This document shows positions 40,505 through 49,170 of a stretch of DNA of 64,000 nt, piece by piece (position 1 is the stretch's first letter; each line of letters begins with the position of its first letter). Source of the DNA: Solwaraspora sp. WMMD792. GTDB taxonomy: Bacteria; Actinomycetota; Actinomycetes; Mycobacteriales; Micromonosporaceae. Position numbers and translations under genes: made by a program. The notes beneath the pieces are model-generated. The model was not told where the DNA came from, ran no database searches, and was given only the letters and a program-made list of their open reading frames with translations. The DNA lies in contig NZ_JARUBH010000009.1 of the NCBI RefSeq assembly GCF_029626105.1, positions 1,674,001 to 1,738,000 on the forward strand. The letters run 5' to 3'.

Positions 40505-41986
40505 ATGGTGAGCGCGAGGAGTGAGCGAGCGCAGCGAGTGAGCCCCGCAGCCGCGAACGGCCGGGGCGAGCGTGGGCAGCGTGACCGTGGGCAGCGTGGC
40601 CGCCGCCGGCGGGCCGATCCGGCGCGGGACGCGGCGTACGATGCCGTCGCGGCGGTGTACCGCGATGACGCCTACGCCAATCTGGTGTTGCCGACGATCC
40701 TGCGGGACCGGGAGCTGCGGGGGCGTGACGCCGCTTTCGCCACCGAGTTGGTCTACGGCACGCTGCGGCTGGTCGGCACGCTCGATCTGATCATCGCTCG
40801 GGCGGCCGGGCGGGAGGTGGACCGGATCGATCCGCCGGCCCGTGACGCGCTGCGGCTGGGCGCGTACCAGCTGCTGCGTACCCGGGTTCCGGCGCACGCC
40901 GCGGTGTCGGCCACGGTGGATCTGGTGCACGACGTGGCGCCGGGGGCGGTCGGCTTCGCCAACGCCGTACTGCGGGAGATCGCCAGCCGGGACCTGGACG
41001 ACTGGCTCGCGGAGCTGGCACCGGACGAGCAGGCCGACCCGGTAGGTCACCTGGCGGTGACCTACCACCATCCGCCGTGGATCGTCCGGGCGTTCGCGGA
41101 GGCACTCGGTGAGGAGCCCGGCGACGGCCTGGCCGAAACGACCCGGCTGCTGATCGAGGACAACGAGCCGCCACCGGTGCATCTGTGCGCCCGACCGGGC
41201 CGGGTCGACGTGGTCGAGTTGGCGGACGCCACCGGCGGGGCACCGGGCGCCTTCTCGCCGTACGCCGTGTATCTGCCCGGCGGGGCACCGGGCGAGGTTC
41301 CGGCGGTCCGCCAGGGCCGGGCGCACGTGCAGGACGAAGGCTCGCAGTTGGTGGCGGCGGCGTTGGCCGACGCCGAGGTGTCCGGTTCGGACCGGCGGTG
41401 GCTGGACCTGTGTGCCGGTCCGGGTGGCAAGGCGGCGCTGCTCGGCGCGCTGGCCGCCGGTCGCGGCGCCGAGGTGACCGCAGTGGAGGTCGCCGAGCAC
41501 CGGGCCCGGCTGGTGGAGCAGGCGGTACGCGGGCTGCCGGTGGCGGTGCACGTCGCCGACGGTCGGCGAGTGGGTGCCGGGACGGAGCTGCCCGAGTCGT
41601 CGTTCGACCGGGTGCTGGTGGACGCTCCGTGCACCGGGCTCGGCTCGCTGCGCCGCCGTCCCGAGTCGCGCTGGCGGCGCCAGCCGTCGGACCTGCCGCC
41701 GTTGACCCGGTTGCAGCGGGAGCTGCTCGCCGCCGGGCTGCGGGCGGTCCGGCCGGGTGGTGTGGTTGCCTACGTGACGTGCTCACCGCACCGGGTGGAG
41801 ACGCACGTGTCGGTGACCGAGGCGGCCCGTCGGTCCGGCGTACCGGTGGATTTCGTTGACGCCCGACCGTTGCTGCCGGCGGGTATGCCGGGGCTCGGCG
41901 CCGGGCCGTCGGTGCAGTTGTGGCCGCACCGGCACGGCACCGACGCGATGTTCATGGCGTTGCTGCGCCGGGCCGGTCAGCCCTGA
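40505..41986 (+). CDS. rsmB: 16S rRNA m5C967 methyltransferase
   Basis: RsmB methylates C967 of 16S rRNA. An N-terminal NusB-like RNA-binding domain (about residues 40-170) is followed by a Rossmann methyltransferase domain. The latter has the SAM motif LDLCAGPGGKAALL and both catalytic cysteines (VDAPCTGLG and YVTCSPHRVETHV). The ATG at 40505 places the second repeat copy at the N-terminus, adding about 35 basic, low-complexity residues not expected in the family. A later start near residue 35 is possible, but I see no good ribosome binding site. The end overlaps a convergent gene by 10 bases. Confidence 0.93.
   Translation: MVSARSERAQRVSPAAANGRGERGQRDRGQRGRRRRADPARDAAYDAVAAVYRDDAYANLVLPTILRDRELRGRDAAFATELVYGTLRLVGTLDLIIARAAGREVDRIDPPARDALRLGAYQLLRTRVPAHAAVSATVDLVHDVAPGAVGFANAVLREIASRDLDDWLAELAPDEQADPVGHLAVTYHHPPWIVRAFAEALGEEPGDGLAETTRLLIEDNEPPPVHLCARPGRVDVVELADATGGAPGAFSPYAVYLPGGAPGEVPAVRQGRAHVQDEGSQLVAAALADAEVSGSDRRWLDLCAGPGGKAALLGALAAGRGAEVTAVEVAEHRARLVEQAVRGLPVAVHVADGRRVGAGTELPESSFDRVLVDAPCTGLGSLRRRPESRWRRQPSDLPPLTRLQRELLAAGLRAVRPGGVVAYVTCSPHRVETHVSVTEAARRSGVPVDFVDARPLLPAGMPGLGAGPSVQLWPHRHGTDAMFMALLRRAGQP
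40508..40560 (+). repeat. 53-bp direct repeat, copy 2
   Basis: Differs from copy 1 at two positions near its 3' end. It is translated as residues 2-19 of the rsmB product, reading [14 protein letters not shown] recall very similar junction sequences in other Micromonosporaceae genomes, so this may be a dispersed family element; that is not checked. Confidence 0.9.
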
Positions 41987-42885
41987 CGGACCGGCAGGGC
42001 GTCGGTGCCGCCGTCGCGTACCGAGCGGGTCAGCGGTGGTTCGTCGCGCCAGAGCAGGCAGCGTACGGCGAGGTTGCCGTCGTCCCACTCGTCCTTGAAC
42101 GGGTAGTCGTAGATGGTGCCGAAGCGGTGTCGCAGGTCGTCGTCGACGGGTAGGTCGGCATAGTCGGCGACGACCCGGCGGCATCGTTCGTGTACCTGGT
42201 CGGCGTTGGCGGCGAACTCCTCGTAGGGCAGGTCGGCTTCCAGGTACAGGCCGGCGAATTCGCTCTGATGTGGTTCGGTGCAGGCCACCGGTGCGAGGAT
42301 TCCGACGTCGCCGGCGGCGTTGGCGCTCGGGTTGAAGCAGCCCCAGCGCAGCGGGCTCGGCTGGTCGAGGGCGCCGGCGAGGCTGCCGGTGCGGGCGACG
42401 AAGGTGCGGTCCTGCATGCTGACCACCTCGCCGACGTCGCACCGGTACCAGCGAGCGCCGCCGTTCCAGGCCGTCGTGGACGGGACGACGACTTCGAGCC
42501 GGAGCCGGCCGGCCTGCCAGTCGTCGCCGAGGAACTCGTGGACCCGCTGGTCGCAGTCGGTGCGGGCGGCCCGCCGGCTGGACGAGCCGGGGGCGGGGGA
42601 GTGGTCTGGTACGCCGTACACCCCGGTGAAGATCCCGACGAAGACCGTCTCCACTTCGTGAGACTGTCCGCAGCTGACGGGTGTGTATTCGGTGCCCTGG
42701 CCGACGGTGCCGGCGGCGACCGGATGACACTCGCCGGCCCGTGGAACGAACACTTTCGGTGTGGCGATCCCCGCCCAGTCATTGGTCAGGTCGCCATCGC
42801 CGATGTCGGACCGGACAGCGGGCGCGCATCCCGCCGCTGTCGTCAGAACCGCGACCGTCAGAACCAGCCTTATCCACCGCCGCAT
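41977..42885 (-). CDS. Septum-formation family lipoprotein
   Basis: The 302-residue product has a lipoprotein signal peptide ending in the lipobox TAAGC (Cys at about residue 20), so it should be anchored on the outer face of the membrane. The mature part has repeated Cys-containing segments (AGECHPVAAG, PVSCGQSHEVETVFVG, GCFNPS, VACTEPHQSEFAGLY) typical of the actinobacterial septum formation domain. ATG at 42885 follows GGGGAGGG. A role at the septum is inferred from the family name only; the biochemical function is unknown. Confidence 0.85.
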   Translation of the reverse strand: MRRWIRLVLTVAVLTTAAGCAPAVRSDIGDGDLTNDWAGIATPKVFVPRAGECHPVAAGTVGQGTEYTPVSCGQSHEVETVFVGIFTGVYGVPDHSPAPGSSSRRAARTDCDQRVHEFLGDDWQAGRLRLEVVVPSTTAWNGGARWYRCDVGEVVSMQDRTFVARTGSLAGALDQPSPLRWGCFNPSANAAGDVGILAPVACTEPHQSEFAGLYLEADLPYEEFAANADQVHERCRRVVADYADLPVDDDLRHRFGTIYDYPFKDEWDDGNLAVRCLLWRDEPPLTRSVRDGGTDALPVRQG

Positions 42886-43044: not shown

Positions 43045-44094
43045 TCAGGCAGGTTGGACGAACGTGATGGTCTGCGGACCGTTGGTACGAATTGGTTCGC
43101 CGGTGGCACTGCTGAAGTCGGTGCCACCGTGCCAGCGGTGCTCACCACTGCAGACACAGTGGATCTTCACCTGCTGTCGCGGCAGGATCATGAGCGACGC
43201 GCCGGTCGCCCCGTCGGCCAGCTCGACGATCCCCACCGGGTCCTTAGTGCTGACGTTGATCAGATCCAACCGACCCGGGCCCTGCGGTGGGTCGGCGATC
43301 TCGATGCTGATCGAGGTCCCGGCCTCCATCTGGTACGCGTACGGCGGGGCGTTGACGTCCGCCGCTACCAGGTCGGCGCGCAGCCGGTTGCCGACGTGCC
43401 CGCTCCACTGGTACGGGTAGCCGTCCGCCTTGAACAGCAGCGGCCACTCGTACGGTCCCAGCCAGTCGATGACGAACGAACCCTTGTCGTCGACCGGTGA
43501 GTAGCGCGGATCCCGCGAACCGTCGGCGACCGGCGCGACGAGGCCGACCGTACCGTTCGTCAGGGTCTCGTCGTCGGCGCCCTGCACGGTGCCGGTGATC
43601 ATCGAGCGCGGGTCCAGACGGATCGTCGGTCCGGGCCGCACCTCGTCGGCGGAGAAGGTGAACCACCGTGCATCCTTCTGGGTGCCGGTGCCACCGTCCT
43701 GACTGACCCACTGGGCGCCGTACTGGCTACCCGAGTCGGGCAGTGCGAACAGATTGTAGGAACCCGGCCCGGGAACCGAGACATTCACCCGGCCCCGCGA
43801 GTCGCTGCGGGTCGGACAGACGTCGGAAAAGCTGAATGTGAATACCGGAACGGCGAATACGCAGATGTCGGCCACCGGCTCGCCGGTGATCGCGTCCACC
43901 ACGTCGGCGCGGATACCCGGCCCGTCGAAGGCCGTCGTCGCGTACGCCTGCGGTGCGATCGTGGCACCGCCCAGCAGGGCCGCGGCGACCACCGAACCGA
44001 GGACGATCCTCCGTTTCCGGTTGCCGACCGAGCGCGGTTCGACGGCGCGGTGGGCCCCGCCTCTGCCGCCTGTGGAAAATCGAATGATCCTCAA
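43045..44094 (-). CDS. Secreted protein with carboxypeptidase-regulatory/CNA-B-like beta domains
   Basis: The 349-residue product starts with a long basic leader and a hydrophobic signal (RRIVLGSVVAAALLGGATIA), cut probably after AYA at about residue 52. The mature part has beta-rich repeats resembling CarboxypepD_reg/CNA-B modules: DVVDAITGEPVADICVFAV with DSRGRVNVSVPGPG, then GTVQGADDETLTNGTVGLV with DDKGSFVIDWLGP. No catalytic motif is seen. The start is TTG at 44094 with AAAGGGG eight bases upstream. An adhesive or structural role is possible but unproven. Confidence 0.75.
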   Translation of the reverse strand: MRIIRFSTGGRGGAHRAVEPRSVGNRKRRIVLGSVVAAALLGGATIAPQAYATTAFDGPGIRADVVDAITGEPVADICVFAVPVFTFSFSDVCPTRSDSRGRVNVSVPGPGSYNLFALPDSGSQYGAQWVSQDGGTGTQKDARWFTFSADEVRPGPTIRLDPRSMITGTVQGADDETLTNGTVGLVAPVADGSRDPRYSPVDDKGSFVIDWLGPYEWPLLFKADGYPYQWSGHVGNRLRADLVAADVNAPPYAYQMEAGTSISIEIADPPQGPGRLDLINVSTKDPVGIVELADGATGASLMILPRQQVKIHCVCSGEHRWHGGTDFSSATGEPIRTNGPQTITFVQPA

Positions 44095-44460
44095 CGAGGT
44101 TGCCCCTTTCGCATTTCACTGAACTGCCTGGTGCCAGATGAGTTTGTAGCACGGAAGACAGCGTGAAGTCGGCTACGGAGGGCTGATTTCTGTGGTGTTT
44201 TGTCTCCACTGGAGGGGCGATTTTCCGAAAGTCGGTGAAATCGGAACGCAAAATGAGGGTGAAACGCATTCAGTCGGTTGACCGGAGGGGCGTCGCCGTG
44301 GCGTCACCGGCCGGACCCGGCTCGCCCGCCACCGGTAACGACCGCGTGACGGCTCGTCAGAGATCGTCGACCGCAGCACGGACCGGCCGCACGACCTCCG
44401 CGACACCCGGTCGTCACCCGGCCCGCCAACCAGTGTCGCGTGAGCCGCCAGGGAGCCCAC
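44095..44460. promoter_or_regulatory. Divergent promoter region of the secreted protein gene and the tailoring cassette
   Basis: The 366-bp gap holds both promoters. An A/T-rich core (44120-44270) contains a nested inverted repeat at 44218-44243 (CGATTT/AAATCG outside, CCGA/TCGG inside) that could be an operator. The right 190 bases are GC-rich and without a convincing gene. AGGGAG precedes the ATG at 44461. Confidence 0.45.
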
Positions 44461-46743
44461 ATGATCAGGACGATGCTGCGGATCCGCGCCCGCCGCGGAT
44501 CCGCGAAGACGGTCGAAGCCGCGTGGCGAGCCGCTGCCGATCGGGTCGGCGGTAGCGCCGGCAACCATCTGTGGCAGTTGCTCGTCGCCGCGGACGATCC
44601 GTCGACCTACGTGATGGTCGCCGAGTGGACCGACGAGGCGGCCCGGCGCCACTACGAGAACGGGCCGGTCGCCGCGTACCTCGCCGGTGTGGTCGAAGCC
44701 GCCTGCGAGCCGGTGACCCCTGACAGCTACCGGGTGATGGGCGGTCGGCCGGACCCGGACTCGCTGATGTACGTGGACGTGACGGTCGACGTACCGGCCG
44801 ACCGGGTCGCCGACTTCCAGCGCGGCCACGCCGAGGTCGTCGCCCGGATGGCCGCGGTACCCGGCTACCTGGGGGAGGAACTGCTACGCGAACCCGGATC
44901 ATCGGTGCACCACATCTTCGCGCAGTGGCGCGGTGCGGAGCTGTTCCGCCGCTGGATCGACGACCCCGACCACGAGCGGGCCGAAGCAGGACCGATCGCC
45001 GAGTTCCTGGTCGGCATCCGGCCACGCGTGTTCCGCGCGTTCGACCCGGACCAGCAGCCCGTCCAGCCGGTCGCGACCCGACCCACCGCCCGGCACACCA
45101 CCACGGACGTGTTGGTGGTCGGCGCCGGACCGACCGGGCTGACCACGGCGATCGAACTGGCCCGGCGGGGCGTCGACTGCCAGGTGATCGACAAACTGAC
45201 CAGCCCACCGGACCAGGCCGACAAGGCGATCGGGGTGCACTGCCGCACCATGGAGATCTGGGCGGACCAGGGCGTCGACCGGGAGGCCATGAACGCCGGC
45301 AGCTGGCTGGTCGGTCAGGCGGTCTTCGTCAACGGGCACCAGGTACACCGGGGCAGCTGGGAACTGCCCGGGCTGCCGTACGCGCACCTCGGGCTGCCGC
45401 AGTACGAGACCGAACGGATCCTCACCGACCGGCTCGCCACGCTCGGCGTACGGCCCCGGCGCGGCACCGAACTGGTCGACTTCACCAGCCACGACGACGG
45501 GGTCACCGCCAACCTCGCCCACGCCGACGGCGGCACCGAGACGGTCCGCGCCAAGTTCCTCGTCGGCGCCGACGGCGCGCACAGCCGGGTACGCCAACTA
45601 CTCGGCCTCACCTTCACCGGCGGGCTGGGCCGATTCCCGCAACTGTTCATGCTCGGCGATGTCGACGTCGACTGGGACATGCCCGCCGGCCACCTGCTTC
45701 GGTTCATCCACGAAACCGACGGCCAGCTGGACAACATGCTCGTCTGCGTACCGCTGCGGGGTGAATCCCGCTACCGGATCGCGACCATGGCGCCACCGCG
45801 CTACTTTGCCGCCACCCGCGGCGAGAACGCCCCGCCCGGGTTCAGCGCCGAACTCGGCGAACCGACTCTCGCCGACGTGCAGGCGGTGCTGGACCAGCTC
45901 GCCCCGGCCGGGACGACCGCGTCCAACCTACGTTGGTCGTCGATCTTCCGGATCAGTCACGGCATCGTCGATCGCTACCGCGACGGACGGATCTTCGTCG
46001 CCGGCGACGCCGCGCACCTGCATCCGCCGGCCGGCGGTCAGGGCATGAACACCGGCATCCAGGACGCCTGGAACCTGGCCTGGAAGCTGGCATTGGCGGT
46101 CCGTGGTGTCGCCGCGCCCGGCCTGCTGGACAGCTACCAGATCGAGCGCCGGCCACAGGGGGAGGAAGTCGTCGGGCGGGCGGTGCGGCTGGCCTTCACC
46201 GACGAGTTGGAACGCGAGGACCTCGAACGGCAGTTCCTGCAGGAGATGTCGATGCTGGTCAGCTACGCCGACAGTCCACTGGTCGGCGAGTCGTTGGCCA
46301 CAGTGGACGCGCTGCGGACCGGCCCGGCCCCGGGGGAGCGCGCTCCCGACGTGTCCGGCCTGCGTCGACGCGGCGTCGGACACCCGCTGCGGCTGCACGA
46401 GCTGACCCGGGGGACCCGGCACACCCTGCTGCTCTACGCCGACCGGACGGCGGACGAGGCCACTCTGGCCGCCATCGACAAGCTCAGCGCCGACCTGCCG
46501 GAGCGGACGTACGGCGAAGTCGAGGTCTACCTGCTGCTCAGCCCGGACACGCCGGCCCCGCCGGCGGACCATCCACCGGTGCTCCACGACGCCGCCGGCG
46601 GGTTCCGGGCCGGGTACGGCACCGCCGGTGCCGCCGCCTACCTGATCCGGCCGGACGGGTACGTCGGCTTCCGCAGCCAGCCGATCGACGTCGAGGCACT
46701 ACGCCACCACCTGCACCTGGTGTTCAACGGCGGTGTCCGGTGA
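44461..46743 (+). CDS. FAD-dependent aromatic polyketide monooxygenase with two N-terminal ABM-like domains
   Basis: The 760-residue protein has three parts. Residues 1-85 and about 105-195 are each ferredoxin-like ABM (antibiotic biosynthesis monooxygenase) modules (MVAEWTDEAARRHYE; IFAQWRGAELFRRW). From about 210 a class A FAD hydroxylase follows with VVGAGPTGLTTAIELARRG, FLVGADGAHSRVR and the GDAAHLHPPAGGQGMN flavin motif. A thioredoxin-like end completes the PheA/TfdB type. The family hydroxylates or cleaves polycyclic aromatic polyketides. ATG at 44461 has AGGGAG; the next gene overlaps by 4 bases. Confidence 0.88.
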   Translation: MIRTMLRIRARRGSAKTVEAAWRAAADRVGGSAGNHLWQLLVAADDPSTYVMVAEWTDEAARRHYENGPVAAYLAGVVEAACEPVTPDSYRVMGGRPDPDSLMYVDVTVDVPADRVADFQRGHAEVVARMAAVPGYLGEELLREPGSSVHHIFAQWRGAELFRRWIDDPDHERAEAGPIAEFLVGIRPRVFRAFDPDQQPVQPVATRPTARHTTTDVLVVGAGPTGLTTAIELARRGVDCQVIDKLTSPPDQADKAIGVHCRTMEIWADQGVDREAMNAGSWLVGQAVFVNGHQVHRGSWELPGLPYAHLGLPQYETERILTDRLATLGVRPRRGTELVDFTSHDDGVTANLAHADGGTETVRAKFLVGADGAHSRVRQLLGLTFTGGLGRFPQLFMLGDVDVDWDMPAGHLLRFIHETDGQLDNMLVCVPLRGESRYRIATMAPPRYFAATRGENAPPGFSAELGEPTLADVQAVLDQLAPAGTTASNLRWSSIFRISHGIVDRYRDGRIFVAGDAAHLHPPAGGQGMNTGIQDAWNLAWKLALAVRGVAAPGLLDSYQIERRPQGEEVVGRAVRLAFTDELEREDLERQFLQEMSMLVSYADSPLVGESLATVDALRTGPAPGERAPDVSGLRRRGVGHPLRLHELTRGTRHTLLLYADRTADEATLAAIDKLSADLPERTYGEVEVYLLLSPDTPAPPADHPPVLHDAAGGFRAGYGTAGAAAYLIRPDGYVGFRSQPIDVEALRHHLHLVFNGGVR

Positions 46744-47120
46744 CCGCCGCTTCCCCGAACCAGCCGGGCCAGCCGGGCCGGGCTGGCCGGACGGGCCCGG
46801 CCGGTCCGGTCCGTGCCGTGCTGTCCATGCGGACCCGCCCCGGGTGCGAGCGGCGGTTCGAGACCGAGTGGCAGGCCATCGCCGATCAGATCCGCACGCT
46901 CGACGGCTGCCTGCGCCAGGACCTGGTCCGCGACGCCGACGATCCCCGCAGCTACCTGATCATCACCGACTGGGCGGACCGGGAACGCCTCGACGCGTTC
47001 GGCCGCAGTGCGCAGCGCGACCGCCTGCTGCGGGTGATCCGGGAGTTGCGCGAATCCGCGCAGCGGCACACCTACCAGGTGCTGCACAGCGTGCCGAGCG
47101 AACGAGAGGAGCCGCGATGA
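46740..47120 (+). CDS. ABM-family monooxygenase
   Basis: This 126-residue protein has a Pro/Gly-rich leader of about 25 residues followed by one ABM domain (VRAVLSMRTRPGCERRFETE, DPRSYLIITDWADRERLDAF). Cofactor-free ABM enzymes oxidise anthrone-type rings to quinones in aromatic polyketide pathways. GTG at 46740 overlaps the preceding stop (GTGA), and its own stop overlaps the P450 ATG by 4 bases. Whether the leader is real depends on this start; internal starts are few. Confidence 0.82.
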   Translation: MTAASPNQPGQPGRAGRTGPAGPVRAVLSMRTRPGCERRFETEWQAIADQIRTLDGCLRQDLVRDADDPRSYLIITDWADRERLDAFGRSAQRDRLLRVIRELRESAQRHTYQVLHSVPSEREEPR

Positions 47121-48385
47121 CCGCCGACCCACGACCGGCCGAGCCGGTCGGATCCGCCGAGCCAGCCGTCCCGGCGGCGGAGTTCTACACCGACGGTTAC
47201 GCCGCCGACCCGTACCCCACCTACGCCCGGATGCGTGCGCAGTGCCCGGTCCGGTTGGTCGCCTCACCTCGGTTCGACTCCTATCTGATCACCCGCTACG
47301 ACGACGCGCGGGCGGCGTTGACCGACCCTCGGCTGTCCAAGGACCTGTACGGCCCGGAAGGCCACTACCTGCGGTTCTTCGGGCCCAACTCGGAGGGCCT
47401 GAACAAGAACATGCTCAACTCGGATCCGCCGGAGCACAGTCGGCTGCGGCGGCTGGTGTCGCAGGCGTTCGCGCCCCGGCGGATCGAGGCCCTGCGGCCC
47501 CGGATCGGCCAAGTCGTCGACGACCTGCTCGACAAGTTCGCGCCGAGAGGCGAGGCGGACCTGATGCACGAGTTCGCCGTACCGCTGCCGATGGTGGTGA
47601 TCTGCGAGCTGCTCGGCGTGCCGAAACCCGACCACGAACAGGTGCTCGGCTGGACCCAGGTGATCCGGACCTCCGGCTCGGCCAGCCGCCCGCCCGACCA
47701 GGAGCGGGCGGCGGTGCAGCAGGTACAGGCACAGCTGCACGACTACCTGACCGGGCTGGTCCGGGCCAAACGCGCGACGCCGGCCGACGACATGCTGACC
47801 GCCCTGATCGACTCCTGCGACCACGGCGGGGCGCTCACCGAACGGGAGCTGGTCTCCACCGCGTTCCTGCTGCTGTTCGCCGGTCACCAGACCACCGCCG
47901 ACTTCATCGGCAACGCCATGCTGGCCCTGTTGACCAACCCTGGACAGTACGAGCTGGTGCGGGCCCGGCCCGAGCTGCTGCCGGCGGCCGTCGAGGAGCT
48001 GCTGCGCTTCGACGGCCCGCTGCCGATCGCCAGCCCTCGGGTGGCCACAGAGGACGTCGAGTACGACGGTGTCCGCATCCCCCGCGGAGCGGCGGTCGGG
48101 GTGGTGCTCAACTCGGCCAACCGCGACCCGGACCACTTCACCGACCCCGACCGCCTCGACGTGACCAGCGAACGCGGACCCCATCTGGGCTTCGGCCACG
48201 GGGTGCACTACTGCCTGGGCGTCTCGCTGGCCCGCATCGAGGCCCGGACCGGTATCGGCGGGTTGCTGCGCCGGCTGCCGGACCTGCGGCTGGCCGTACC
48301 CGCCGCCGAACTTCGCCGACTCCCGGCGGCCTCGCCGTTTCGCGGGCTGCTCGAGCTGCCGGTCCGGTTCACCGCCGCCGGCTGA
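47117..48385 (+). CDS. Cytochrome P450
   Basis: The 422-residue soluble P450 has the I-helix oxygen-binding motif LLFAGHQTTADFI, an EELLRF ExxR region and the heme loop LGFGHGVHYCLGVSLAR with axial Cys366. The N-terminus FYTDGYAADPYPTYARMR is of the bacterial CYP105/107-like class that tailors secondary metabolites. It needs a ferredoxin and reductase encoded elsewhere. ATG at 47117 has GAGAGGAG upstream and overlaps the ABM gene stop. Confidence 0.93.
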   Translation: MTADPRPAEPVGSAEPAVPAAEFYTDGYAADPYPTYARMRAQCPVRLVASPRFDSYLITRYDDARAALTDPRLSKDLYGPEGHYLRFFGPNSEGLNKNMLNSDPPEHSRLRRLVSQAFAPRRIEALRPRIGQVVDDLLDKFAPRGEADLMHEFAVPLPMVVICELLGVPKPDHEQVLGWTQVIRTSGSASRPPDQERAAVQQVQAQLHDYLTGLVRAKRATPADDMLTALIDSCDHGGALTERELVSTAFLLLFAGHQTTADFIGNAMLALLTNPGQYELVRARPELLPAAVEELLRFDGPLPIASPRVATEDVEYDGVRIPRGAAVGVVLNSANRDPDHFTDPDRLDVTSERGPHLGFGHGVHYCLGVSLARIEARTGIGGLLRRLPDLRLAVPAAELRRLPAASPFRGLLELPVRFTAAG

Positions 48386-48388
48386 CCT

Positions 48389-48460
48389 ACCACCGGTCAC
48401 CGGGCGAACCGACCCGGCCGATCCACCACCGGTCACCGGGCGAACCGACCCGGCTGATCC
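48389..48460 (+). repeat. 36-bp exact tandem duplication
   Basis: Two directly adjacent 36-bp units (48389-48424 and 48425-48460) differ at one base. They fill most of the gap between the P450 and cyclase genes, starting 3 bases after the P450 stop. Confidence 0.92.
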
Positions 48461-48483
48461 CCACCGTTCTGTGAGGAGTTGTC

Positions 48484-49170
48484 ATGGTCTTCCGCAACGT
48501 GATCGTCTGCCGCATGGTGCCGGGCAGCGAGGACAAGATCGCCAAGACGTTCGGCCACTACGACAAGGCCACCCGGCCGCAGGACTTCGGCGTCATCGGG
48601 CGCATCCTGCTGTCCCACCACGACCTCTACATCCACATCGTCGAACGCAACGAGGACCCGGCGGTCTCCGGGCAGACCCGGGGCCTGCCGGCGTTCAAGG
48701 AGATCGCCGAGGCGATCGGCCCGTACGTCACCCCGTATCCGCGCAACTGGCAGAACCCGTCGCACTCGGTGGCCAAGGAGTTCTACCGCTGGACTGCGGA
48801 GGGGAGCAGCCCGGCGGAAGGGGCCGGCCCGGACCCGGCCGACCGGCATCTGACCGTGATCGTCGGGCGGATCAAGCCCGGCGCGGAGGACAACGTCGCC
48901 CGGATCTTCACCGAATCCGACGCCGGCACGTTGCCGGTCGAGATGAGCGTGACCGCACGCTGGCTCTACTCGATCGACGACGTCTACGTGCATCTGCTGG
49001 AACGCTCGGTCCCGCACACCGCCGACGACGCGCGGATCCACGACAAGCCGAAGTTCGGCAAGATCATGGAGGAGTTGAGCCCGTACATCAGCCCGTACAA
49101 CCAGGATGCCTGGCGCGGCCCGGTGGACGCGGTCGCCAAGGAGTACTACCGCTGGCGGGCCGAGGACTGA
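48484..49170 (+). CDS. Tandem TcmI-type polyketide cyclase
   Basis: TcmI cyclases close late rings of aromatic polyketides and are normally single domains of about 105-110 residues that dimerise. Here one 228-residue protein holds two. Residues 1-106 (RNVIVCRMVPGSEDKIAKTF ... AVAKEFYRW) and about 121-228 (LTVIVGRIKPGAEDNVARIF ... AVAKEYYRW) are separated by a short Pro/Ala/Glu linker. Both halves keep the family N-terminal strand and the closing YRW motif, but differ in the middle. GAGGAG precedes the ATG. The last 25 bases overlap a convergent gene. Confidence 0.87.
   Translation: MVFRNVIVCRMVPGSEDKIAKTFGHYDKATRPQDFGVIGRILLSHHDLYIHIVERNEDPAVSGQTRGLPAFKEIAEAIGPYVTPYPRNWQNPSHSVAKEFYRWTAEGSSPAEGAGPDPADRHLTVIVGRIKPGAEDNVARIFTESDAGTLPVEMSVTARWLYSIDDVYVHLLERSVPHTADDARIHDKPKFGKIMEELSPYISPYNQDAWRGPVDAVAKEYYRWRAED

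What the first reader, a model, noticed from the sequence alone, without database searches (positions are those of the whole stretch)
44461..49170. Orphan cassette of aromatic-polyketide tailoring enzymes without a synthase
Four co-directional genes, the first three joined by 4-base overlaps, encode an ABM-ABM-FAD hydroxylase, an ABM monooxygenase, a P450 and a tandem TcmI cyclase. These families are known from type II PKS clusters, yet no ketosynthase, chain-length factor, ACP, ketoreductase or regulator is present within the 64 kb. Either the cassette serves a PKS elsewhere in the genome (for example a spore pigment) or it modifies a different aromatic substrate. Five ferredoxin-like small domains in four genes is striking.
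Basis: partly seen in the sequence, partly recalled or inferred. Interest (0 to 1): 0.72.

Follow-up and report, generated by a model that had tools for sequence, protein, structure and literature searches.

The report
Detached half of split pigment cluster
Four enzyme genes that looked orphaned are most likely the detached finishing half of a pigment-type aromatic polyketide pathway whose builder genes lie about two million bases away and share a promoter signal with them; related bacteria with the builder genes carry either this finishing set or a different one, almost never both or neither.

Summary
The four genes are real: ABM-ABM-FAD hydroxylase, ABM, P450, tandem TcmI. No type II ketosynthase lies in the window. 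The genome has one type II KS/CLF pair, at C9:7.05 Mb, in an operon with one TcmI, carboxylase subunits, ACP-aromatase and cupin but no oxygenase.

In 5 of 29 named loci, all from other genera, the hydroxylase gene sits beside KS/CLF; in 23 of 23 Micromonospora loci no type II KS lies in the flanks held.

Of 126 family genomes with the own-type KS, 47 carry this hydroxylase, 79 an unrelated FAD monooxygenase (FAD449), none both, none neither. In 54 further Micromonospora genomes, 49 of 50 KS carriers have exactly one; the 4 KS-less genomes have neither. Remnants of each module occur beside the other.

Cassette and PKS operon share a SARP-box-like promoter element: two exact copies in the genome, one at each. 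A matrix trained only on cassette-less genomes marks 31 of 31 detached and 1 of 10 undetached hydroxylase genes.

Best reading: the detached tailoring half of a whiE-like, probably spore-pigment, cluster, co-regulated in trans. Regulator binding, product and reaction order are inferred.

The parts
44292..44351 (+). Promoter element shared with the remote PKS operon: GTC-N8-GTCAC (11-nt direct repeat, SARP-box like) followed by GTGACG
   Evidence: Exact pattern occurs twice in the own genome, here and upstream of the PKS operon at C9:7055064-7055123; reversed-pattern control 1 hit; own-genus alignment; matrix test
44461..46743 (+). ABM-ABM-FAD aromatic hydroxylase (760 aa): two N-terminal ABM domains, FAD_binding_3, Rng_hyd_C
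   Evidence: Pfam; solved relatives are rifampin monooxygenase and polyketide hydroxylases such as PgaE; orthologues
46740..47120 (+). Stand-alone ABM protein (126 aa from the GTG at 46740)
   Evidence: Pfam; best solved match WhiE-ORFI 9lmn, weak, E 2.7e-4
47117..48385 (+). Cytochrome P450 (422 aa)
   Evidence: Pfam; best solved match PikC
48484..49170 (+). Tandem TcmI-type polyketide cyclase (228 aa, two ferredoxin-like domains)
   Evidence: Pfam; model pLDDT 84.1, pTM 0.83; best fold match WhiE-ORFI 9lmn, E 1.7e-9; best sequence match TcmI 1tuw

Best explanation
The cassette is the detached tailoring half of a whiE-like type II polyketide pathway. The only type II KS/CLF pair in the genome lies 1.87 Mb away (shorter arc, if the contig is circular) in an operon TcmI - AccA/D - BCCP - BC - ACP/aromatase - cupin - KS - CLF, with a divergent SARP gene and no oxygenase in the operon. 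Proposed working: the SARP binds an 11-nt direct-repeat box upstream of both operons and switches them on together; the PKS, ACP-aromatase, cupin and single TcmI build and partly close the poly-ketone; the cassette's tandem TcmI completes ring closure, the ABM domains oxidise or hold the anthrone-like intermediate, and the FAD hydroxylase and P450 add oxygens. Most Micromonospora use another module for the corresponding step, a 449-aa FAD monooxygenase (FAD449) plus a 105-118-aa ABM gene after CLF (ABM105). Shown by sequence: the two loci, the alternation, the remnants, the shared element. Inferred: SARP binding, reaction order, product, and that it colours spores (about 0.65).
For: (1) One type II KS/CLF in the genome, no oxygenase in its operon. 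(2) Hydroxylase gene beside KS/CLF in 5 of 29 named loci, other genera; Rugosimonospora's KS is 82% identical to the own KS. (3) Among 126 genomes with own-type KS: 47 hydroxylase only, 79 FAD449 only, 0 both, 0 neither. Prediction noted before the FAD449 and KS searches, then tested on 54 Micromonospora genomes not used before: of 50 KS carriers 11 and 38, 0 both, 1 neither (87% complete); 4 KS-less genomes have neither. (4) ABM105 at 76 of 77 FAD-type KS loci, directly after CLF in 76 of 76, and at 0 of 44 cassette-type loci. (5) Remnants both ways: 5 FAD-type genomes keep ABM and tandem TcmI without the hydroxylase; cassette-type G283 keeps a 95-aa FAD449 fragment. (6) Shared promoter element: two exact copies in the genome; 31 of 31 detached against 1 of 10 undetached. 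(7) Best fold match of the tandem TcmI is WhiE-ORFI.
Against: No expression, binding or product data. The alternation rests on at least 5 evolutionary switches; the phylogeny-aware sign test gives p 0.0625, its floor for 5 pairs. The pattern was fitted by eye; in the 6 other own-genus genomes it marks both promoters in 1, the cassette alone in 4, neither in 1, with five hits elsewhere. With the first matrix only 1 of 7 own-genus cassette promoters passes the 99th percentile. Two of 49 cassette genomes lack an own-type KS: G053, fused to a KS 64% identical to the own one, and G246, with none found. Cassette genome G182 also has a weaker FAD449-like gene (59%, 543 bits, on another contig than its KS). 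The second TcmI is not diagnostic: 63 of 77 FAD-type and 35 of 44 cassette-type loci. A Bac_luciferase-family gene lies 2.2 kb after CLF, outside the operon, so the PKS locus is not devoid of oxidoreductases.
Confidence: 0.86

Rival explanations
1. The cassette acts on a different aromatic substrate, unrelated to the remote PKS; the co-occurrence reflects shared ancestry only.
For: Related bacteria share many genes; only at least 5 independent switches are seen; G246 has the cassette without an own-type KS.
Against: Exclusive alternation with FAD449 in KS carriers and absence of both modules in the 4 KS-less genomes of the second sample; fused clusters in other genera; shared promoter element.
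Confidence: 0.08
2. The cassette is a decaying leftover of a former fused cluster, no longer used.
For: Reduced cassettes exist in 5 FAD-type genomes.
Against: In this genome all four genes are full length with overlapping starts kept; hydroxylase and tandem TcmI are conserved across genera; reduced forms were seen where FAD449 is present.
Confidence: 0.04
3. Right pathway, wrong regulator: the common promoter element is a site for another developmental regulator, not for the SARP at the PKS locus.
For: The element combines direct repeats with an inverted half site; no binding data exist.
Against: 11-nt period of direct repeats as in classical SARP sites (PMC10972967, passages); a SARP gene lies beside the element at the PKS locus.
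Confidence: 0.3

Closest known systems
whiE / sch / cur spore-pigment type II PKS clusters of Streptomyces
   Same: KS, CLF, ACP, aromatase, cupin, TcmI cyclase, ABM-type proteins and a FAD hydroxylase. WhiE-ORFI (9lmn) is the best fold match of the tandem TcmI and the best, weak, sequence match of the ABM gene among solved structures. whiE genes were reported in all Micromonospora strains of one study except M. cremea (PMC5765111, passages).
   Different: The tailoring half is detached and has ABM-ABM-FAD and tandem TcmI fusions and a P450; the PKS half carries carboxylase subunits, an ACP-aromatase fusion and a SARP. whiE gene content and order are recalled.
Pentangular polyphenol clusters (pradimicin, frankiamicin) and formicamycin
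   Same: TcmN-, TcmJ- and TcmI-type cyclases with ABM proteins; the ABM protein PdmH is needed for correct ring closure (PMC4383371, PMC6689052, passages).
   Different: No ketoreductase recognised in the PKS operon; ABM domains are fused to the FAD hydroxylase; the cluster is split.
Salinispora type II PKS thought to make black spore pigment; S. tropica pks3
   Same: A type II PKS in all S. arenicola strains, thought to make the black spore pigment (PMC12838356, passage); pks3 may make a spore pigment, product unconfirmed (PMC7888443, passage).
Sub-clustered sioxanthin pathway of Salinispora
   Same: Precedent for one pathway spread over loci in this family (title seen in the reference lists of PMC5765111 and PMC12838356; the paper is not held).
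   Different: Carotenoid, not type II polyketide; I recall no exclusive module exchange there.

Membership tests
whiE-like type II PKS system | KS/CLF pair with ACP, aromatase, cupin and TcmI cyclase | tested here: met
   At C9:7.047-7.055 Mb of the own genome, not in the window: KS, CLF, cupin, ACP + Polyketide_cyc fusion, TcmI.
whiE-like type II PKS system | FAD hydroxylase and ABM-type protein | tested here: met
   Present in the detached cassette. Orthology of the FAD gene with WhiE ORFVIII was not tested.
whiE-like type II PKS system | One contiguous cluster | tested here: not met
   Two loci, 5.33 Mb apart on the contig, 1.87 Mb by the shorter arc if circular.
whiE-like type II PKS system | Product deposited in the spore | not testable with these tools
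   No expression or chemistry data.
Pentangular polyphenol PKS | TcmN-, TcmJ- and TcmI-type cyclases plus ABM proteins | tested here: met
   Polyketide_cyc, Cupin_2, Cyclase_polyket and ABM domains; the cupin as TcmJ-type rests on its place beside KS.
Pentangular polyphenol PKS | C-6 ketoreductase | tested here: inconclusive
   None seen in the PKS operon or the cassette; the rest of the genome was not searched for one.
SARP regulon | BTAD-domain regulator gene at the target cluster | tested here: met
   268-aa gene at C9:7055348-7056154, divergent from the PKS operon; BTAD domain found in its G114 orthologue.
SARP regulon | Heptameric direct repeats with 11-nt period in the target promoters | tested here: met
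   GTC-N8-GTCAC at both promoters of the own genome; rule from PMC10972967 (passages).
SARP regulon | Binding and activation by the SARP | not testable with these tools
   Needs EMSA, DAP-seq or a mutant.

The most novel reading that the evidence does not exclude
A nearly universal pigment PKS of Micromonosporaceae runs with one of two non-orthologous, interchangeable oxidative modules. At least five switches have happened, with remnants in both directions; each module has been detached from the PKS more than once (the cassette in the own genus, g2 and Micromonospora; FAD449 in g11 and g36), and detached copies carry the PKS operon's promoter box, so the cluster is held together by a regulon instead of by linkage. 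The two module types should give two pigment chemotypes.
Probability: 0.6. Interest if true: 0.78.

Novelty: new variant of a known kind. Interest (0 to 1): 0.64.

Why it matters
Genome mining that bounds clusters by distance would miss this half and see the PKS half without its oxygenases. A conserved split, an exclusive replacement module, natural remnants and a shared promoter element make the question of how a gene cluster survives being split directly testable. The two loci together predict the missing oxygenases of a pigment-type PKS; for the related Salinispora pks3 the product was described as unconfirmed (PMC7888443, passage).

Tried and rejected
Tried and set aside. (a) Viral and phage collections were not searched. 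A plasmid search with the hydroxylase found no record covering 80% of it. (b) AlphaFold2 of the hydroxylase was poor (pLDDT 63; the ABM part mostly about 80-87), so no fold search was run on it. (c) Complementary half-active sites in the tandem TcmI: both halves keep invariant Asp, Arg and His (27/40/51 and 146/159/170) at positions I recall as the TcmI active site, so the idea was dropped. (d) A pseudogene of the hydroxylase in the five reduced cassettes: tblastn showed only its ABM-like part aligning to the ABM gene. (e) NCBIfam gave no model above its cut-off among the matches shown. (f) One search printed nothing; one search used wrong coordinates and was discarded. (g) Literature searches listed no title that describes a split spore-pigment or type II PKS in this family or exclusive tailoring modules; I saw listings and passages only, so this is not proof of absence.

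Rows and thresholds. KS counted at 711 bits or more (next 678, a second copy in a counted genome, then 632), hydroxylase at 1065 or more (next 855), FAD449 at 675 or more (next 543). E<=1e-250, 1e-190, 1e-205. KS loci: 121 of 126 fetched, used. One search counts a gene by its best BLAST match anywhere in the stretch; one FAD-type locus (L127, G264) also has a 33% identical hydroxylase-like gene, not counted. G062, without own-type KS, has weak matches to both hydroxylase and FAD449. Motif test: L068, L098, L099 dropped as duplicates of L020, L028, L018; L032 and L109 gave no alignable start. Genes in fetched loci were called by my own simple script.
Full report
OBSERVATION. The window holds the four co-directional genes as described: ABM-ABM-FAD hydroxylase (44461-46743), ABM protein (46740-47120), P450 (47117-48385), tandem TcmI cyclase (48484-49170). 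The first three are joined by 4-base overlaps; gene 4 follows after 98 nt. The window is C9:1674001-1738000 of a 7.4 Mb genome; no KS hit lies in it.

THE PARTNER. The genome has a single type II KS/CLF pair at C9:7047192-7049710. Of the 22 KS-type hits one more (C9:3776479, 37% identical) has ordinary length and looks like FabF (my reading); the other 19 lie in open frames of 876 aa or more. The operon reads TcmI - AccA/D - BCCP - BC - ACP+aromatase fusion - cupin - KS - CLF, with no oxygenase gene in it and a divergent 268-aa SARP-type gene. A Bac_luciferase-family gene lies 2.2 kb beyond CLF, separated by an HxlR-type regulator and a small gene on the other strand. The two loci are 5.33 Mb apart on the contig, 1.87 Mb by the shorter arc if it is circular.

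NEIGHBOURHOODS. One search, which finds near relatives only, gave 29 loci from named genomes. In 5 a type II KS/CLF lies beside the hydroxylase gene: Amycolatopsis rhizosphaerae, A. taiwanensis, Rugosimonospora africana, Planosporangium flavigriseum and, without the ABM and P450 genes, Modestobacter excelsi. The 23 Micromonospora loci show none in the flanks held (up to 10 kb, several cut by contig ends); one Geodermatophilaceae locus is cut at its left end. The 6 other own-genus genomes have the cassette without a KS in 19 kb, and own-genus cassettes lie 1.87-2.94 Mb from the KS by the shorter arc. In the 30 Micromonospora genomes with both on one contig the gap is 86-354 kb, median 151.5 kb. 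In the hydroxylase tree most early branches are fused clusters, and fused Planosporangium falls with Micromonospora. This suggests that fusion is ancestral and detachment happened more than once; several forks are open, so it is tentative.

AN ALTERNATIVE MODULE. KS loci without the cassette typically carry a 449-aa FAD monooxygenase (FAD449) and, directly after CLF, a 105-118-aa ABM gene (ABM105). FAD449 is not an orthologue of the cassette hydroxylase: only short stretches align, and the solved relatives differ (4hb9 and TetX against rifampin monooxygenase and PgaE). In 300 family genomes, 126 have the own-type KS; of these 47 have the hydroxylase, 79 FAD449, 0 both, 0 neither. ABM105 is at 76 of 77 FAD-type and 0 of 44 cassette-type loci among the 121 fetched. 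FAD449 is at 68 of 77; of the other 9, 5 are stretches cut short by contig ends or by my choice of range and 4 are truly detached. A second TcmI is at 63 of 77 and 35 of 44, so it is not diagnostic. After the hydroxylase search of all 160 held g4 genomes, and before the other two, I noted the prediction 'exactly one'. Among the 54 genomes not examined before, 50 have the KS: 11 the hydroxylase, 38 FAD449, 0 both, 1 neither (G325, 87% complete); the 4 KS-less ones have neither.

REMNANTS AND REPEATED SPLITTING. Five FAD-type genomes keep a reduced cassette: ABM and tandem TcmI in 5 of 5, full-length P450 in 2, an 87-aa P450 fragment in 1, none found in 2, hydroxylase in 0 of 5. On the KS+CLF tree 4 of the 5 group with cassette-type genomes; G291 does not. 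Conversely cassette-type G283 keeps a 95-aa FAD449 fragment at its KS locus. In four g11 and g36 genomes FAD449 is 0.62-3.39 Mb from the KS; in the two whose surroundings I read it follows a TcmI gene. Module type changes at least 5 times on the KS+CLF tree; all 5 independent pairs go in opposite directions, p 0.0625, the floor for 5. The Fisher values ignore relatedness and are not to be read as probabilities.

SHARED PROMOTER. Own-genus promoter alignments showed a common element: GTC-N8-GTCAC, an 11-nt direct repeat as in classical SARP sites (PMC10972967, passages), then GTGACG. The exact pattern occurs twice in the own genome, upstream of the cassette (window 44292-44351) and of the PKS operon; the reversed pattern once. 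In the 6 other own-genus genomes exact hits fall at both promoters in G105, at the cassette alone in 4, at neither in G034; five more hits lie elsewhere. Because that pattern was fitted by eye, I trained a matrix only on PKS-operon promoters of genomes without the cassette: 31 of 31 detached cassette promoters reach the 95th percentile of 724 control upstream regions and 12 of 31 the 99th, against 1 of 10 and 0 of 10 for hydroxylase genes still beside KS/CLF. A first matrix, trained on PKS promoters of both kinds, put 13 of 23 Micromonospora but only 1 of 7 own-genus cassette promoters above the 99th percentile; it also put the five reduced cassettes and two detached FAD449 loci in the top 0.6% of 756 controls. 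That the SARP is what binds there is inferred.

MECHANISM. TcmI closes a late ring, and ABM proteins oxidise anthrones or keep cyclisation on course (PMC6689052, PMC4383371, passages); FAD hydroxylases and P450s add oxygen (general knowledge). The best fold match of the tandem TcmI over both halves is WhiE-ORFI of the S. coelicolor spore-pigment cluster, 9lmn, also the best, though weak, sequence match of the stand-alone ABM among solved structures. whiE genes were reported in all Micromonospora strains of one study but M. cremea and proposed to underlie the black pigment (PMC5765111, passages); a Salinispora type II PKS is thought to make black spore pigment (PMC12838356, passage). I therefore commit to a spore-pigment-type aromatic polyketide; that last step is the least certain, about 0.65.

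NOVELTY. Split pathways, whiE-like clusters and SARP regulons are known. The searches listed under Tried and rejected showed no account of a split type II pigment cluster in this family or of exclusive tailoring modules on one PKS. I rate it a new variant of a known kind.

Noticed in passing
window 48380-48451: Two tandem copies (92% identical) of a 36-nt unit, from the last bases of the P450 gene into the gap before the tandem TcmI gene.
   Followed up: no
L004 15054-18680 (C9:7.05 Mb): The PKS operon carries its own carboxylase set (BC, BCCP, fused AccA/D); 14 of 121 related KS loci show neither AccA/D nor BC in the stretch held, some of these stretches being short.
   Followed up: partly
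L099 (G246; contig length equal to Micromonospora sp. HK10 NZ_KQ058837.1): Genome with a full cassette but no own-type KS; its best KS hit is 41% identical. Assembly gap or real loss.
   Followed up: partly
L196 and L197 (G010, G036): A TcmI gene followed by FAD449 stands 3.32 and 0.62 Mb from the PKS operon, with an upstream element that scores like the PKS-operon element.
   Followed up: partly
G000:C9:1877225-1927745, outside the window: Eight KS hits in very long open frames, probably a modular type I PKS, about 140-190 kb downstream of the window.
   Followed up: no
L004 8031-8993: Bac_luciferase-family gene 2.2 kb after CLF; a similar 320-322-aa gene lies near CLF in several own-genus loci with differing genes between.
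   Followed up: partly
window 41980-42885 and 43048-44094, minus strand: Upstream neighbours: a Septum_form-domain protein and one with a sub-threshold CarboxypepD_reg match; both also lie upstream of the cassette in G114 and, with one gene between, G105, but were not both seen there in the other four own-genus stretches.
   Followed up: no
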